Positions 1 to 5,296 of a DNA stretch of 11,014 nucleotides are shown here, piece by piece. Location: assembly GCA_900554165.1 (NCBI GenBank), contig USGR01000016.1, forward strand, positions 1-11,014, given 5' to 3'. A program made the position numbers and the translations under genes. The notes under the pieces are model-generated. The model worked only from the letters and a program-made list of their open reading frames with translations. It was not told the origin of the DNA and made no database searches. Every line of letters begins with the position of its first letter. Position 1 is the stretch's first letter. Source of the DNA: an uncultured Oscillospiraceae bacterium (lineage in GTDB: Bacteria > Bacillota_A > Clostridia > Oscillospirales > Acutalibacteraceae).

Positions 1-921
1 CTGCCATTCAGCCACGGGACGGCCGTAGATGGCGTAGCCGTTGCTCCACATCTCCGGAAACAGCGCGATGTCCGCGCCGAGCGCGCGGTTCAAAATGACG
101 ATCGCTTCCGAGCGCTTGACCGCATTGTCCGGCAGCATCTTGCCGTCAATGCCGTTGAGCAGGCCGAGCGCGACCGCGCGGCCCAGCGCATCCGCCGCCC
201 AGTGGCCCTCGATATCCGGAAAGGCCGGCACGACAGGCTGCTCCGGCTCGCCGGGCTGCGTCTCCGTGCTGGTCAGCGTCAGCTCGACAGGCAGGGTGCG
301 CGCCGCGATGCGCGCGATATACAGCCGGGCCTCGTCCTCGGTAAAGCTGCCGGTCAGGGTGCAGCCGCCGTTCTCGCCCGCGCTCTCCGCCGTGGCCTGC
401 GCGATTTCCGCGCCGTCCATCGTGACGGTGAGCGTCGAGGCCGCGTCGAGCGCCTCTGCAAAGGTCTCCTCGCCCTCGTCGGTGAAATTGACCTGTATGT
501 ACGGGGTTTCGTCATCGGCAAAGCCGAGCGAGCTTTCCGACACGTTTTCGCGGGTCAGCCAGACCTTGCCGTCCGCGTCCGTGAACGCCAGCTCGTTCCG
601 CCATGCGAGGAACTCCGCCACACTATCGGTTTCCGTGTCCGTAGGCAGGGTGACGACGACCGTCTGCCGGTCCTCCGGGAAGGCGATCTCCGCCCCGGCA
701 ATGTTCAGCTGCTCCAGACGGTGCTCGAGCACGACACGCACCTGTTCGACCACAGCATCGTGCATCTGGTCGGTGTCATATTCGTCCGGCAGGATGACGG
801 CATAGGTCAGCACGGTGCTGCCGGACTGCCCCTCTGCTTCTGCCGCACTGCCGCCCGCGGCGAATGCCGTCGTCAGCAGCATCATAACGGCCAGCAGACC
901 GCTTATCACACGTTTTTTCAA
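1..921 (-). CDS. Secreted SecD-like domain / S-layer homology (SLH) protein, C-terminus cut by window edge
   Basis: The 307 visible codons read leftward off the window. The start is TTG at 921, preceded by AAGGGGG (930-936) 8 nt away; the ATG further upstream is followed at once by a stop. Residues 1-28 look like a signal peptide (KKR, then a hydrophobic core, then AFA-A). Residues about 55-215 resemble the first extracytoplasmic domain of SecD: VVLEHRLEQLNIAGAEI, then VVVTLP, NELAFTD, VNFTDEGEETFAEA, VTMDG, LTGSFTEDEA and ARTLPVELTL. A Pro/Glu linker precedes an SLH repeat at about 234-283 (FPDIEGHWAADAL...LNGIDGKMLPDNAVKRSEA), which normally anchors proteins to cell-wall polymer. I see no further membrane helices, so this is probably not a working SecD translocase subunit but a wall-bound protein that reuses the fold. 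More SLH repeats may lie beyond the edge. The function is unknown. It diverges from the zinc-ribbon gene. Confidence 0.87.
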   Translation of the reverse strand, partial: MKKRVISGLLAVMMLLTTAFAAGGSAAEAEGQSGSTVLTYAVILPDEYDTDQMHDAVVEQVRVVLEHRLEQLNIAGAEIAFPEDRQTVVVTLPTDTETDSVAEFLAWRNELAFTDADGKVWLTRENVSESSLGFADDETPYIQVNFTDEGEETFAEALDAASTLTVTMDGAEIAQATAESAGENGGCTLTGSFTEDEARLYIARIAARTLPVELTLTSTETQPGEPEQPVVPAFPDIEGHWAADALGRAVALGLLNGIDGKMLPDNAVKRSEAIVILNRALGADIALFPEMWSNGYAIYGRPVAEWQ

Positions 922-953
922 GGAATATTCCCCCTTGCTACATCATTATTTTC

Positions 954-982
954 ATTGTACGTTTGCCGGGTAGGCTTGTCAA
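954..982 (-). promoter_or_regulatory. Sigma-A promoter of the SecD-like/SLH gene
   Basis: Read on the minus strand, TTGACA (977-982) is followed after exactly 17 nt by TACAAT (954-959). This is near consensus and sits about 33 nt upstream of the TTG start. Confidence 0.8.
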
Positions 983-1087
983 GCGCAAGCATGGTTTCAG
1001 TTTCGATACAAAATCCTTTGTCCGGCCATTTCCCGTACCATTCCGAACTGACGGGCCGCCGTCCGGTTTTGTTCCCGCCGGCAGAGG

Positions 1088-1116
1088 TTTACAAGCGCTT
1101 TGCCGCGTGCTATACT
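1088..1116 (+). promoter_or_regulatory. Sigma-A promoter of the zinc-ribbon membrane protein gene
   Basis: TTTACA (1088-1093), 17-nt spacer, TATACT (1111-1116). It lies 59 nt upstream of the ATG and faces away from the minus-strand promoter at 954-982, so the two genes are transcribed divergently from separate promoters. Confidence 0.75.
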
Positions 1117-1175
1117 ATTATAGGCTATTTATAGCCGCATTGAATTGGTATATTTTTCAGAGGAGGAAACCATAC

Positions 1176-2486
1176 ATGCTTTGCAAGAACTGCGGCAAGG
1201 AGCTGCCCATTGCGGGCAAATTCTGCCCATTCTGCGGCGCGCCCGTCGAGCAGACCGGCGTCAACGACGAGACCGCCGTTTTCACCTCGCTGCCCGAGGA
1301 CCTCGAAGGCCCGATCGATCTGTCGGCGTTTGACGCCGCGATGAAGGAGGGCCATCCTTCCGCCGGCGCGGCGGAGGACGGCATCACGGCCGGCGATCCG
1401 CTCGCTGCGACCGACACGCGCATCCCTGCATCCGACGAGCTGCCGCCCATCGACGTGCCGCCGGTGCGCCGTGCAGCCGGCACGCCCGAGGCCCCGCGCA
1501 CGACCTATTTCGGCGAACCCGATCCGGACGACAGACCCTACCGAAAGCCCTCCAAGGGCAAAAAGGGCGCGGTCATCGCGGTCGTGGTCATCATCATTAT
1601 CGCGCTCATCGCGGGCGGCGTGTGGTTCTTCCTGTCCCGCAGCCAGCCGGATGAGAACCTCACCCTTGCCGAGCAGTACATGAACCGCGGCGACTTTGAC
1701 AAGGCGCTCGAATACTACCTCGCGGCGCAGGCCGAGGCCAGCGACCCGTCCTCGCTGGATGCGACCATCCAGCTGATCCGCGACTATCAGGCCGCGCAGG
1801 ACTATGTGGACAACGGCCAGTACACCGAGGCAGTCGCGGCGCTCAAGCAGCTGCAGAACCGCGTGACCGACCCGTCCTCCGCGCTCTATGCCGCGGTTGA
1901 GGACCTGCTCAGCCAGGCGCAGTCCGCCCAGTCGGACAGCGAGTTTGCCGCGGACTTCGAGCGCGCGCAGGAATACCTCGCAAACAGCCAGTATGACCAG
2001 TGCGCGGCCATGCTCGACACGCTCGACGCGGACGACACCCTGACCGACGACCAGAAGCAGCAGGTCGCCGACCTGCGCGAGGAACTGACCAAGGCGCAGG
2101 AATCCGCGCAGCGCCAGGAGGAGAACCAGCAGCAGCAGTCCGAGCAGAAGCAGTCGTTCTCGGAGCGTATTGACTCGCTCGAGCAGACCGACCTGGAAAT
2201 CGCGTCCGCCGCCACCGCGGAGGATGAGCTCGCGCTGACCGCAAGCTCGTTTGAGCAGTGGGACGCGCTGCTGATGGAGATGTACGATTACTTGTCCACC
2301 ATCCTGAACGCCGACCAGTACGCCGCTGAGGAAGCGAGCTTCCAGCAGTGGGTCGAGGAGCGCGACTCCGGCGCGGCGAACGCCGCCAGCGCGGTCGAGG
2401 ATGAGACCGAGGCGCAGCTTGCCTCCTACAGCTTCCGCCAGAGCTATACCAAGGCAAGATGCTATAAGCTGCTGGATATGATGTGA
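1176..2486 (+). CDS. Zinc-ribbon, single-pass membrane protein with TPR-like and LprI/DUF1311-like extracellular region
   Basis: 436 aa from ATG 1176, with AGGAGG (1161-1166) 9 nt upstream. The open frame continues further upstream, but that part lies across the promoter. Residues 1-21 form a zinc ribbon with Cys3, Cys6, Cys17 and Cys20 (CxxC-10-CxxC). Residues 30-125 are a disordered Pro/Asp-rich linker. A basic patch (KPSKGKK) precedes a transmembrane helix at about 131-153, so the ribbon is predicted inside and the rest outside. Helical repeats resembling TPRs follow at about 164-190, 206-230 and 262-285. A Gln/Glu-rich coiled coil spans about 292-325. The C-terminus (about 345-433) resembles the LprI/DUF1311 family: a spaced W...RD...A segment and a closing TKARCYKLL helix. 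Only the general architecture is recognised; the role is unknown, perhaps envelope sensing or scaffolding. It stands alone between its own promoter and terminator. Confidence 0.9.
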   Translation: MLCKNCGKELPIAGKFCPFCGAPVEQTGVNDETAVFTSLPEDLEGPIDLSAFDAAMKEGHPSAGAAEDGITAGDPLAATDTRIPASDELPPIDVPPVRRAAGTPEAPRTTYFGEPDPDDRPYRKPSKGKKGAVIAVVVIIIIALIAGGVWFFLSRSQPDENLTLAEQYMNRGDFDKALEYYLAAQAEASDPSSLDATIQLIRDYQAAQDYVDNGQYTEAVAALKQLQNRVTDPSSALYAAVEDLLSQAQSAQSDSEFAADFERAQEYLANSQYDQCAAMLDTLDADDTLTDDQKQQVADLREELTKAQESAQRQEENQQQQSEQKQSFSERIDSLEQTDLEIASAATAEDELALTASSFEQWDALLMEMYDYLSTILNADQYAAEEASFQQWVEERDSGAANAASAVEDETEAQLASYSFRQSYTKARCYKLLDMM

Positions 2487-2501
2487 TCCAAATACGGGAC
2501 G

Positions 2502-2535
2502 AACGGGACGGGCCGCCAGGCCTGTCCCGTTTTTT
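2502..2535 (+). terminator. Intrinsic terminator of the zinc-ribbon protein gene
   Basis: Arms 2502-2514 and 2519-2531 form a 13-bp GC-rich stem (one G-U) with a GCCA loop and a run of six T (2530-2535). It begins 15 nt after the stop codon. Confidence 0.9.
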
Positions 2536-2592
2536 CTGCCCGCATCCGCTGCATCGGCTTGCGAAATTTCCGGTTTTTCTTTTATTTGCCTC

Positions 2593-2622
2593 TTGACAAA
2601 TTTTCGGTTTGCGCGCTATAAT
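2593..2622 (+). promoter_or_regulatory. Consensus sigma-A promoter of tRNA-Asn
   Basis: TTGACA (2593-2598), 18-nt spacer, TATAAT (2617-2622). Both hexamers are perfect consensus, as expected for a stable-RNA gene, and they lie 42 nt upstream of the mature tRNA 5' end. Confidence 0.88.
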
Positions 2623-2664
2623 GGTTAGGCTAACTGCAATAGATGTACCAGCAAATTTGTACAT

Positions 2665-3945: not shown

Positions 3946-4251
3946 GTGATAATTGTGGCAATTTTTATAGGAAGCATTATTCTGCTTATTTTATTATGTA
4001 GTGTGGTAGTTTCTGCAAAAGCAATTTCTAAAAGAAACCGGGATGATCAATCTGATGCAGTATATCGTGATAACTATCGTTATCGCAATCAATACAGAGA
4101 GGATTCAGACGATTCGATTTCAATAGAATCATCTGAGTCAGAAGAATCTACTACAGAATCTGTAAAAATCAATATGGAGGAGGAGTCTGAGGATTATTTT
4201 AGTGCAGAATCTACAACTGTAATTGCTCCGGGCGAAGATATTAAAAAATAA
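3946..4251 (+). CDS. Small acidic single-pass membrane protein, unknown function
   Basis: 101 aa from GTG 3946; GTG 3955 is an alternative (98 aa) that would place GGTGA (3945-3949) at 5 nt. Neither start has a strong ribosome site. Residues 1-25 are a hydrophobic membrane helix (IFIGSIILLILLCSVVVSA), followed by a basic stop-transfer segment (KAISKRNR) that suggests the C-terminus is cytoplasmic. The remaining 65 residues are disordered and very acidic, with Ser/Glu-rich runs such as SIESSESEESTTES. I recognise no family. Support for a real gene is a sensible membrane topology, an uninterrupted frame, and a stop codon (4249-4251) directly followed by a strong hairpin. It could be spurious, since its strand has no clear promoter. 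Confidence 0.55.
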   Translation: MIIVAIFIGSIILLILLCSVVVSAKAISKRNRDDQSDAVYRDNYRYRNQYREDSDDSISIESSESEESTTESVKINMEEESEDYFSAESTTVIAPGEDIKK

Positions 4252-4290
4252 AAAAGAAAACGTCCAAAAATTTTGTTTTGGACGTTTTCT
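4250..4290. terminator. Bidirectional terminator shared by the small ORF and small RNA A
   Basis: A perfect 15-bp stem (4255-4269/4276-4290) with a 6-nt loop. On the minus strand the stem is followed by TTTTTT (4255-4250), A, TTTTTT, a very strong termination tail. On the plus strand the U run is only the stem's TTTTCT. The minus-strand geometry is the better one, which argues for a transcript arriving from the right. Confidence 0.88.
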
Positions 4291-4358
4291 GTTAGCTTAA
4301 AATTTTGATTGAGAAGAATGGGAGGTAGAAAAGATAGTTGCGGTCTATCTTTAACTAC
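4250..4358 (-). ncRNA. Putative small RNA A (about 109 nt), paralogous to small RNA B
   Basis: The inferred transcript starts near 4358, 7 nt past a TATAAT box (4365-4370), and ends in the T run near 4250. In order it contains: a perfect 8-bp hairpin (4345-4352/4330-4337) whose loop is ACCGCAA; an unpaired pyrimidine-rich stretch with ACCTCCC (4320-4326), which is complementary to a Shine-Dalgarno; CTCAATCAAA (4304-4313); AAGCTAAC (4291-4298); and the terminator. The same order occurs in small RNA B about 190 nt upstream. This combination of promoter, structure, single-stranded C/U-rich motif and terminator is typical of trans-acting regulatory RNAs of the LhrC or csRNA kind, which block ribosome sites. 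That analogy is structural, not sequence homology. No open frame of note runs along it. Confidence 0.65.
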
Positions 4359-4364
4359 AATGTT

Positions 4365-4370
4365 ATTATA
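4365..4370 (-). promoter_or_regulatory. -10 box of small RNA A
   Basis: Perfect TATAAT on the minus strand, 7 nt before the inferred start. The -35 region is weak: ATAACT at a 17-nt spacing is the best I see, so activation by another factor is possible. Confidence 0.5.
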
Positions 4371-4436
4371 GAATGATATTATGACGAAGTTATGAATAGT
4401 TTTATATTCATTTGTAAACATTCTACGAAAATTTAG

Positions 4437-4469
4437 AAAAAGAAAAACCGAATCATATAGGTTCGGTTT
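4437..4469 (-). terminator. Intrinsic terminator of small RNA B
   Basis: On the minus strand, AAACCGAA (4462-4469) pairs with TTCGGTTT (4445-4452) and is followed by a TTTTTCTTTTT tail (4447-4437). The long T tail lies only on this side, so the minus strand is the transcribed one. Confidence 0.8.
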
Positions 4470-4553
4470 CTTTTGGTTAGCTTGAAAGGTTATTTGATTG
4501 AGGAGTGTAGAATGTACGAAAAGAATGGTTGCGGCTTCCTTTCCTCTGTACAC
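4437..4553 (-). ncRNA. Putative small RNA B (about 115 nt), paralogous to small RNA A
   Basis: The inferred start is near 4551-4553, downstream of TATAAT (4558-4563). The layout matches small RNA A: an 8-bp hairpin, GAAAGGAA (4536-4543) with TTCTTTTC (4518-4525) and one G-U, whose loop carries CCGCAACC; then a pyrimidine-rich stretch with CTCCTC (4500-4505); CTCAATCAAA (4493-4502); AAGCTAAC (4476-4483); and its own terminator. The two hairpin stems differ in sequence yet both still pair, which favours selection for structure. The loop and the two downstream blocks are conserved while the linkers have drifted, suggesting an old tandem duplication. It diverges from lexA across about 85 nt. The predicted role is pairing with ribosome-binding sites of mRNAs; the targets are unknown. 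Confidence 0.65.
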
Positions 4554-4557
4554 TTAT

Positions 4558-4563
4558 ATTATA
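4558..4563 (-). promoter_or_regulatory. -10 box of small RNA B
   Basis: Perfect TATAAT on the minus strand, 5-7 nt before the inferred start. No good -35 lies at 16-18 nt (AACAAT is the best at 17), the same weakness as for small RNA A. Confidence 0.5.
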
Positions 4564-4637
4564 ACGAAAAAAAGAGATGAATTGTTACAGCTCTGTGAAT
4601 AGAGTAAAGTAATTTTGTAAATAAATTCCCTAAATAT

Positions 4638-4651
4638 CAAACATTTGTTTG
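4638..4651. promoter_or_regulatory. Probable LexA (SOS) box
   Basis: CAAACATTTGTTTG matches the Gram-positive SOS box CGAAC-RNRY-GTTYC at 11 of 14 positions, including the AAC...GTT core. Its right end overlaps the lexA -35 hexamer, where a bound repressor would block RNA polymerase. This fits LexA autorepression. Confidence 0.65.
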
Positions 4652-4677
4652 TTTTTTTGATGTATATGTGGTATGAT
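4649..4677 (+). promoter_or_regulatory. lexA promoter (extended -10)
   Basis: TTGTTT (4649-4654), 17-nt spacer, TATGAT (4672-4677), with an extended -10 TG at 4669-4670. It lies about 31 nt upstream of the lexA ATG and overlaps the SOS-box candidate. Confidence 0.75.
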
Positions 4678-4708
4678 TACATTATCCGAAATCAGGAGGA
4701 AAGTTTAG

Positions 4709-5296
4709 ATGAAGCCATTGACAAAAAGCCAACAGCGAATATTTGATTTTTTAAAAGACCGTTCTCAATATGGAATTCCTCCATCCGTACGAGAAATTTG
4801 TGCTGCTACAGGGTTAAAGTCTACTTCCACTGTACATGCCCATTTAAAAGCGTTAGAAAATTTGGGTTACATCTCGCGTGATGCAGGACTAAATAGAGCC
4901 ATTCATATTGAGGGGTGTGAGCAAACAGCACAAGTGCCTATTTTAGGCAAGGTTACAGCAGGACTTCCAATTTTGGCAGTAGAAGAGGTACAAGGTTACT
5001 TACCAATTACTGCTAGTCAACAGAGAGGCCGAGAGCTATTTGCATTAACTGTACAAGGTGAAAGTATGAAAAATGCTGGTATCTTAGACGGTGACTATGT
5101 TGTAGTAGAACGGACTCCTACTGCGCGTGATGGAGATATTGTTGTTGCTTTAATTGAAGATGAAGCAACGGTAAAACGTTTATACAGAGAAACAGATTGC
5201 GTTAGATTACAGCCGGAAAATGATGCGTTTGAGCCAATTTATGCCAAAGAGGTTCTTATTTTGGGAAAAGTAGTTTCTGTAGTGCGTTACTATTAA
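4709..5296 (+). CDS. lexA: LexA, SOS-response repressor / autoprotease
   Basis: 195 aa, close to the usual 200-aa length of LexA. AGGAGG (4694-4699) lies 9 nt before ATG 4709. Residues 1-65 are the winged helix-turn-helix (LTKSQQRIFDFL, then PPSVREICAATGLKSTSTVHAHLKALE). The self-cleavage site is Ala84-Gly85 in KVTAGLPI. The S24-type protease fold supplies the catalytic dyad Ser119 (QGESM) and Lys156 (ATVKRL). RecA-ssDNA filaments trigger cleavage in this family, which derepresses DNA-repair genes. The SOS box at 4638-4651 indicates autoregulation. No terminator follows, so some transcription may continue into mtnN 109 nt downstream, although mtnN has its own promoter. All key residues are present. 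Confidence 0.98.
   Translation: MKPLTKSQQRIFDFLKDRSQYGIPPSVREICAATGLKSTSTVHAHLKALENLGYISRDAGLNRAIHIEGCEQTAQVPILGKVTAGLPILAVEEVQGYLPITASQQRGRELFALTVQGESMKNAGILDGDYVVVERTPTARDGDIVVALIEDEATVKRLYRETDCVRLQPENDAFEPIYAKEVLILGKVVSVVRYY

What the first reader, a model, noticed from the sequence alone, without database searches (positions are those of the whole stretch)
4250..4563. Tandem pair of related small-RNA genes with anti-Shine-Dalgarno motifs, divergent from lexA
The non-coding gap holds two minus-strand units with the same order of parts: TATAAT; an 8-bp hairpin with a loop carrying CCGCAA; a pyrimidine-rich segment (ACCTCCC in A, CTCCTC in B); CTCAATCAAA; AAGCTAAC; and an intrinsic terminator with a T tail only on the minus strand. 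The hairpin stems and terminator stems differ in sequence but still pair, while loop and linker blocks are conserved. This is the pattern of a duplicated regulatory RNA. Multi-copy sRNAs with C/U-rich single-stranded motifs (LhrC in Listeria, csRNAs in streptococci) repress translation at ribosome sites. I do not recognise this sequence as any named family.
Basis: partly seen in the sequence, partly recalled or inferred. Interest (0 to 1): 0.8.

Follow-up and report, generated by a model that had tools for sequence, protein, structure and literature searches.

The report
Undescribed small-RNA family beside lexA
Next to the DNA-damage regulator gene lexA, this relative of gut Clostridia carries two copies of a small RNA whose hairpin and ribosome-site-matching segment are preserved in many related bacteria, and which probably shuts off translation of other genes under the control of a signalling protein.

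Summary
Two related minus-strand units, A (RNA about 4358-4247) and B (about 4551-4437), lie between a 101-codon ORF and lexA. Each has TATAAT, a 5' hairpin with CCGCAA in its loop, a pyrimidine-rich linker and an intrinsic terminator. No Rfam family matches at its cut-off. A covariance model built from 18 lexA-adjacent relatives, window and L001 held out, finds B at E=9.4e-10 and A at E=8.3e-4 in the window. A second model, built from 41 matches, finds the RNA in 68 of 150 sampled genomes of the family of Anaeromassilibacillus and 33 of 394 of its order, samples that include genomes behind the model. The hairpin covaries: 149 double-change cells, 39 in shuffles, at most 45 in slid controls. 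Promoters carry TTMAYA half-sites on an 11-bp lattice upstream of the -10 (45 pairs at 11 bp, 0.04 in shuffles), as expected for an OmpR/PhoB-type response regulator. Best reading: an undescribed trans-acting small RNA that blocks ribosome-binding sites, working like streptococcal csRNAs but shown to be related to none. The tandem pair was seen only in the window and L001. Expression, targets and regulator are untested.

The parts
4583..4599 (-). Unit B upstream direct repeat TTCACA-N5-GTAACA, 19 nt before the -10 (putative response-regulator site)
   Evidence: similar sequence and position in most relatives examined
4558..4563 (-). Unit B -10 box TATAAT
4437..4551 (-). Unit B small RNA (about 109-115 nt); the more canonical copy
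   Evidence: held-out R1 match 4551-4472, 40.8 bits, E=9.4e-10; RNA body 77 of 82 identical to L001 against 501 of 589 columns in the lexA coding sequence
4514..4551 (-). Unit B 5' hairpin, loop carrying GCCGCAA
   Evidence: fold; covariation of this stem in the family
4500..4514 (-). [quoted passage not shown]
   Evidence: sequence; block conserved in relatives in a slightly different form
4480..4490 (-). Unit B second C/U motif ACCTTTCAAGC (ACCCCTCAAGC in many relatives)
4435..4471 (-). Unit B intrinsic terminator and T tail
   Evidence: not flagged on this strand by the consensus scan
4380..4396 (-). Unit A upstream direct repeat TTCATA-N5-GTCATA, 9 nt before the -10 (one 11-bp step closer than usual); a weaker match
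   Evidence: sequence; lattice
4365..4370 (-). Unit A -10 box TATAAT
4247..4358 (-). Unit A small RNA (about 104-112 nt); diverged duplicate
   Evidence: held-out R1 match 4358-4287, 18.0 bits, E=8.3e-4 in the window and 0.063 over 81 sources; RNA body 67 of 68 identical to L001
4325..4358 (-). Unit A 5' hairpin, loop ACCGCAA
   Evidence: fold
4320..4326 (-). Unit A anti-SD segment ACCTCCC
   Evidence: identical in L001
4247..4290 (-). Unit A intrinsic terminator (15-bp stem) and T tail
4709..5296 (+). lexA, divergent neighbour
   Evidence: Pfam LexA_DNA_bind and Peptidase_S24
4638..4651 (+). CAAACATTTGTTTG palindrome upstream of lexA (operator-like by position; not tested); does not overlap the small-RNA promoter
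   Evidence: similar palindromes by eye upstream of lexA in relatives

Best explanation
The two units are tandem paralogues of an undescribed family of trans-acting small RNAs of about 105-120 nt, found in Acutalibacteraceae and some related Clostridia. An OmpR/PhoB-family response regulator, bound as an array on 11-bp-spaced TTMAYA half-sites, activates a promoter that has a -10 box but no evident -35 (inferred from sequence). The RNA folds into a 5' hairpin with a conserved CCGCA loop, an unpaired linker and an intrinsic terminator (supported by folding and covariation). The linker carries anti-Shine-Dalgarno segments; in just over half of the copies examined the first is laid out as SD + spacer + start codon in complement. 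It would pair with ribosome-binding sites of target mRNAs and block translation (inferred). In the window's lineage the gene has duplicated: B keeps the ancestral layout, while A has lost the second C-rich motif and has a shifted anti-SD seed, so it may serve other targets (inferred).
For: No Rfam match at cut-off in the window or 11 relatives. The held-out model finds both copies. R2 finds it in 68 of 150 (family), 33 of 394 (order) and 5 of 398 (phylum) genomes. Hairpin covariation: 85.8% of cells paired, 11 of 11 pairs with a double change, 149 double-change cells against 39.2 shuffled and at most 45 slid. CTCCTCAA in 70 of 77 and CCGCA in 71 of 77 aligned copies. Terminators called in 29 of 38 copies against 0.2 expected from shuffles. 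At most 1 mismatch to TTCAYA-N5-TTMACA in 63 of 75 upstream regions. Half-sites mostly 9, 19-20, 30-31, 53 and 63-64 nt before the -10; 45 pairs at 11 bp against 0.04 shuffled. RNA bodies more conserved than the lexA coding sequence between window and L001. Next gene downstream on either strand: 35 same, 24 opposite, 3 none, of 62, by a rough ORF caller.
Against: No expression data. No target found: near-complements of the anti-TIR block in 11 genomes gave 6 non-self hits (2 in the reversed-pattern control), in unrelated genes. No regulator found: a one-mismatch box search in 12 genomes gave 11 non-self hits against 10 control hits and no shared gene follows. A is a weak member (18 bits with R1) without the anti-AUG register or the second motif. 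The canonical extended anti-AUG form is in 43 of 77 copies, B not among them. In L003 and L006 the second motif pairs with GAGGGG beyond the terminator stem, so it is not always free; in L013 the predicted fold lacks the 5' hairpin. The genome samples include genomes that supplied the model. Shuffle controls ignore relatedness, and A4 is fitted to the model's structure. Of 12 window RNA-TIR pairings, 4 beat 95% of mononucleotide-shuffled RNAs, which any anti-SD sequence may do.
Confidence: 0.72

Rival explanations
1. It is a cis-acting leader (attenuator) of the gene downstream, in many genomes an M23-type peptidase.
For: 19 downstream genes form one protein cluster, in the same direction as the RNA; one member is Peptidase_M23 by Pfam. 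Hairpin plus terminator resembles an attenuator. In L003 and L006 the second C-rich motif pairs with sequence beyond the terminator stem.
Against: The next downstream gene was called on the opposite strand in 24 of 62 loci and not at all in 3; the caller is rough (it missed the peptidase gene in L010, and some opposite-strand calls, such as L031, may be shadows of a same-strand gene), but in the window and L001 the convergent ORF is plain. The RNA also occurs beside other genes (L104, L109, L112, L113).
Confidence: 0.07
2. The RNA acts mainly by binding a protein or the ribosome through the CCGCA hairpin loop and the anti-SD-like linker (a sponge or a 16S 3'-end mimic), not by pairing with particular mRNAs.
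For: Loop and linker are strongly conserved. No conserved near-perfect target was found.
Against: Short C-rich seeds without long complementarity are usual for anti-SD small RNAs such as LhrC and RoxS (passages). In 43 of 77 copies the linker also carries the complement of a start codon at a normal SD distance.
Confidence: 0.15
3. The RNA encodes a short peptide.
For: Some copies have an open frame such as MEPHHYLIHVLPSSIYPSS (similar frames in L006, L010, L013, L020, L023).
Against: Of the 38 copies scanned many, the window units among them, list no frame of 10 codons or more ending near the RNA, and the frames listed in others differ. The linker is conserved base by base rather than by codon position.
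Confidence: 0.03
4. The regulator is PhoP and the RNA is a phosphate-starvation small RNA.
For: TTMACA-N5-TTMACA resembles PhoP boxes of Bacillus (recalled). In the same genomes a TT-rich repeat of this type was found by script upstream of 5 of 12 pstS genes read.
Against: By eye the pstS repeats prefer T or A at position 3, whereas the small RNA prefers TTCAYA. Other OmpR-family regulators use the same head-to-tail geometry (passages).
Confidence: 0.2

Closest known systems
csRNAs of Streptococcus (CiaR regulon; PMC3091779, passages seen)
   Same: Many have a 5' stem-loop and a terminator stem-loop, an unpaired linker complementary to SD and start codon, and a promoter driven by a direct repeat with 11-bp period.
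   Different: Repeat TTCAYA/TTMACA instead of TTTAAG; usually 19-20 nt to the -10 instead of 10; conserved CCGCA hairpin loop; usually one match per genome here; no Rfam match; a different class of bacteria.
LhrC small RNAs of Listeria (PMC4132741, passages seen)
   Same: Redundant CU-rich motifs that block ribosome-binding sites, two-component control, several copies.
   Different: No Rfam match; motif UCCC in other places of the fold; LisR element not comparable.
RoxS/RsaE (PMC4409812, passages seen)
   Same: Conserved small RNA with several C-rich regions that pair with ribosome-binding sites, under a response regulator (ResD/SrrA).
   Different: No Rfam match; conserved upstream element is one 8-nt stretch around -65, not a lattice at the -10.

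Membership tests
csRNA (CiaR-dependent small RNA) | CiaR repeat TTTAAG-N5-TTTAAG, about 10 nt before TATAAT | tested here: not met
   Repeats are TTCAYA-N5-TTMACA, mostly 19-20 nt before the -10
csRNA (CiaR-dependent small RNA) | Unpaired anti-SD plus anti-start-codon sequence between two stem-loops | tested here: met
   B has a variant form (CAUUCUACACUCCUC) in its unpaired linker; the canonical extended form is in 43 of 77 aligned copies, B not among them; A lacks the anti-AUG register
csRNA (CiaR-dependent small RNA) | Expression dependent on CiaR | not testable with these tools
   No expression data
LhrC | Match to the Rfam library, which is expected to hold this family (recalled) | tested here: not met
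   No match at gathering in the window or 11 relatives; the E-value-mode list for 4200-4720 does not name it
RsaE/RoxS | Match to the Rfam library, which is expected to hold this family (recalled) | tested here: not met
   As above
RsaE/RoxS | ResD/SrrA-dependent promoter | not tested
   Regulator unknown; only the half-site lattice was measured
OmpR/PhoB-family response-regulator promoter | Head-to-tail half-sites about one helical turn apart upstream of the -10 | tested here: met
   45 half-site pairs at 11 bp against 0.04 in shuffles, 68 upstream regions; binding itself not testable
Cis-acting leader of an adjacent gene | Same-strand gene immediately downstream | tested here: not met
   Convergent ORF in the window and L001; opposite strand in 24 and none in 3 of 62 loci by a rough caller

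The most novel reading that the evidence does not exclude
This is a core small RNA of Acutalibacteraceae and allied Clostridia, comparable in role to RoxS/RsaE of Bacilli: a response-regulator-driven anti-ribosome-site RNA, kept mostly beside lexA, with an unusual multi-site 11-bp promoter array and a conserved CCGCA loop of unknown partner. In the window's lineage it has duplicated, and copy A has evolved a new seed and a promoter array shifted by one 11-bp step.
Probability: 0.55. Interest if true: 0.72.

Novelty: new variant of a known kind. Interest (0 to 1): 0.62.

Why it matters
Post-transcriptional regulation in these largely uncultured Clostridia is little explored. A small RNA found in 68 of 150 sampled genomes of one family (the search used stricter filters that lose weak matches, and the sample includes genomes behind the model), with a defined promoter array, hairpin and seed, can be probed directly in cultured carriers (Anaeromassilibacillus senegalensis, Scatolibacter rhodanostii). 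The tandem pair shows a seed changing after duplication. The conserved loop points to an unknown partner.

Tried and rejected
Rfam at gathering and E-value thresholds: no match of the element reached a cut-off. Near-complement target search in 11 genomes: 6 non-self hits against 2 in the reversed-pattern control; 5 of the 6 lie at the start of an open frame of more than 100 codons, but in unrelated genes. Regulon search with the promoter box: strict forms hit only the small RNA itself, and in only 4 of 10 and 5 of 13 genomes; the one-mismatch form is at background (11 non-self against 10 control hits in 12 genomes). pstS promoters as a Pho test: of 15 pstS loci given to the script, 12 gave an ORF and 5 of these a repeat by pattern. 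Viral contigs: no exact match of the block in its commonest form. Small ORF in the RNA: not shared by the copies. Literature: ten searches; six aimed at this RNA or its hosts listed nothing describing it, four were on csRNAs, RsaE/RoxS and regulators; the library is open-access only.

Rows dropped or doubtful; of 85 loci, two (L186, L187) had no strand assigned and eight were left out as having the same last 50 upstream bases, leaving 75; of these L173-L175 are the marginal phylum hits, L188 and L189 were read on the wrong strand, and L105/L166 and L113/L167 are the same sites; all stay in the count, and the site was allowed anywhere in 80 bases; a hand-made list of 70, L044 and L184 without a -10 left out; a few half-sites lie off the lattice (6, 13, 17 and 50 nt, two each); four weak rows of A4 left out (L173, L174, L175 and the second match of L035), 77 of 81 kept; 62 loci, strand set by motif or by hand; the ORF caller is rough; terminators not called in 9 of 38, among them L002, L003, L007 and L008, whose folds show long stems.

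Full report
What is there. The gap between an ORF of 101 codons (3946-4251, plus strand) and lexA (4709-5296, plus strand) holds two minus-strand units of the same design. Each has TATAAT, six bases, a hairpin closed by GUAG/CUAC (A) or GUAC/GUAC (B) whose loop carries CCGCAA, a pyrimidine-rich unpaired linker, CTCAATCAAA, AAGCTAAC and an intrinsic terminator. Their similarity is far above chance (local score 61; 2000 dinucleotide-shuffled pairs, mean 21, maximum 44). The predicted RNAs fold as hairpin, linker, terminator (z -7.4 for A, -2.65 for B). Between the window and its nearest relative L001, which has the same tandem pair, the RNA bodies are 67 of 68 (A) and 77 of 82 (B) identical, against 501 of 589 alignment columns in the lexA coding sequence and 243 of 309 in the 101-codon ORF.

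A family. LexA was used to fetch 80 loci. In the 700 bases upstream of lexA, on the opposite strand, L001-L010 carry the element and L011 does not. Eighteen lexA-adjacent copies, without the window and L001, gave alignment A2 and model R1. R1 gave 41 matches with E up to 1 in 38 of 81 sources, that is in the window and 37 of the 80 loci; some loci have little upstream sequence, and L029, which carries the motif, was missed. The held-out B scores 40.8 bits and A 18.0 bits; in the window alone these are E=9.4e-10 and 8.3e-4, the next match being E=0.93. No Rfam family matches the element at cut-off in the window or 11 relatives. In whole genomes R1 finds one match in 16 of 17 handled genomes and in 27 of 394 of the order of G012, the genome of Anaeromassilibacillus senegalensis. 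R2, built from the 41 matches, finds it in 33 of 394 of the order, 68 of 150 of the family and 5 of 398 of the phylum. The five are G012 itself, G040 with a near-identical copy, and three marginal hits (E 3e-4 to 8e-4) that lack the promoter box and may be chance. These samples include genomes that supplied model sequences, and large searches used stricter filters. NCBI places the species in Acutalibacteraceae. Positive genomes show one match each except G830, whose second is at a contig end; R1 reports one match in G001 although L001 holds two copies, so diverged second copies can be missed.

Structure. On 81 R2 matches (75 distinct) the 5' stem is paired in 85.8% of cells, 11 of 11 pairs show a change on both sides, and 149 cells have such a change, against 39.2 in shuffles and at most 45 in slid versions (58 against 18.7 and at most 15 on the first alignment). 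The alignment was fitted to the model's structure and shuffles ignore relatedness; the gap from the slid controls is nevertheless large. Conserved unpaired blocks are CCGCA in the loop (71 of 77), CTCCTCAA (70 of 77) and ACCCCTC (58 of 77; 64 of 77 for [AC]CCCTC[AT]). Terminators were called in 29 of 38 copies against 0.2 expected. Single-sequence folds mostly agree, but in L013 the 5' hairpin is not in the predicted fold, and in L003 and L006 the second C-rich motif pairs with GAGGGG beyond the terminator stem. A second layout, in L029, L047, L051, L076, L078 and L116, has an extra hairpin between the two C-rich motifs.

Seed. In 43 of 77 copies the block has the extended form CAUGUUCUACCCUCC or close to it, the complement of an SD, a spacer of about seven bases and AUG: a translation-initiation region in complement. 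B has a variant of it (CAUUCUACACUCCUC). A has ACCTCCC instead and has lost the second motif. This suggests pairing with ribosome-binding sites, but no target is shown. Near-complements in 11 genomes gave 6 non-self hits, 2 in the control, in unrelated genes. Of twelve RNA-TIR pairs in the window four are stronger than 95% of mononucleotide-shuffled RNAs, which any anti-SD sequence may give.

Promoter. The consensus scan lists no -35/-10 pair at either TATAAT of the window; the relatives were not scanned for a -35. Instead TTCAYA-N5-TTMACA is present with at most one mismatch in 63 of 75 upstream regions (shuffled mean 4.0 mismatches), 19-20 nt before the -10 in 47 of the 67 with at most two mismatches. 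Exact TTMAYA half-sites lie mostly 9, 19-20, 30-31, 53 and 63-64 nt before the -10, and 45 half-site pairs are 11 bp apart against 0.04 in shuffles (68 regions, many of them related). OmpR-family regulators bind such head-to-tail repeats (PMC6222199, passages; csRNAs, PMC3091779, passages). B has the pair at 19 nt, A a weaker pair at 9 nt. Which regulator acts is unknown: box searches elsewhere in the genomes were at background, and some pstS promoters carry a related but different repeat.

Trans-acting rather than cis. The next gene downstream was called on the same strand in 35, the opposite in 24 and absent in 3 of 62 loci. The caller is rough; the convergent ORF in the window and L001 is plain, and other neighbours are seen in L104, L109, L112 and L113. 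Of 42 loci fetched by the RNA alone, 30 have lexA in the held stretch and 12 do not, some of these cut by contig ends. The orientation varies too: in L078 the RNA lies upstream of lexA on its strand, in L076 downstream. The palindrome near lexA does not overlap the small-RNA promoter.

Comparison. It works most like streptococcal csRNAs (anti-SD plus anti-AUG linker, direct-repeat promoter), and like LhrC and RoxS in its C-rich seeds; for these papers I saw passages only. It is shown to be a member of none: the CiaR repeat is not met and no Rfam model matches. Six paper searches aimed at it listed no description.

Verdict. A conserved RNA family is close to certain on sequence evidence.

Noticed in passing
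window 1-2660: GC is about 63% to position 2500 and 31-41% beyond 2500; L001 aligns only from the tRNA-Asn at 2665 onward. This may be a chimeric contig or an insertion at the tRNA.
   Followed up: partly
window 3946-4251 (+): 101-codon ORF with an N-terminal hydrophobic stretch, conserved in L001 (243 of 309 columns); its Pfam match to TMEM154 is barely over the cut-off (30.9 against 30.3 bits) and probably reflects composition.
   Followed up: no
L105:1583-2386 and 18 related downstream genes: An M23 peptidase-type gene follows the small RNA in the same direction in many genomes (cluster of 19; Pfam run on one member only).
   Followed up: partly
L029, L047, L051, L076, L078, L116: A second layout of the RNA with an extra hairpin between the two C-rich motifs.
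   Followed up: partly
L003, L006: The second C-rich motif pairs with GAGGGG beyond the terminator stem, making a longer terminator-like stem.
   Followed up: no
L035:2199-2254 (-): A second, partial copy of the element, 25.3 bits with R2, about 3.5 kb from the first.
   Followed up: no
L044, L045, L050, L067: The terminator loop also carries CCGCAAC; in L044, L045 and L067 the modelled 5' hairpin lacks it, as if the loop motif had moved.
   Followed up: no
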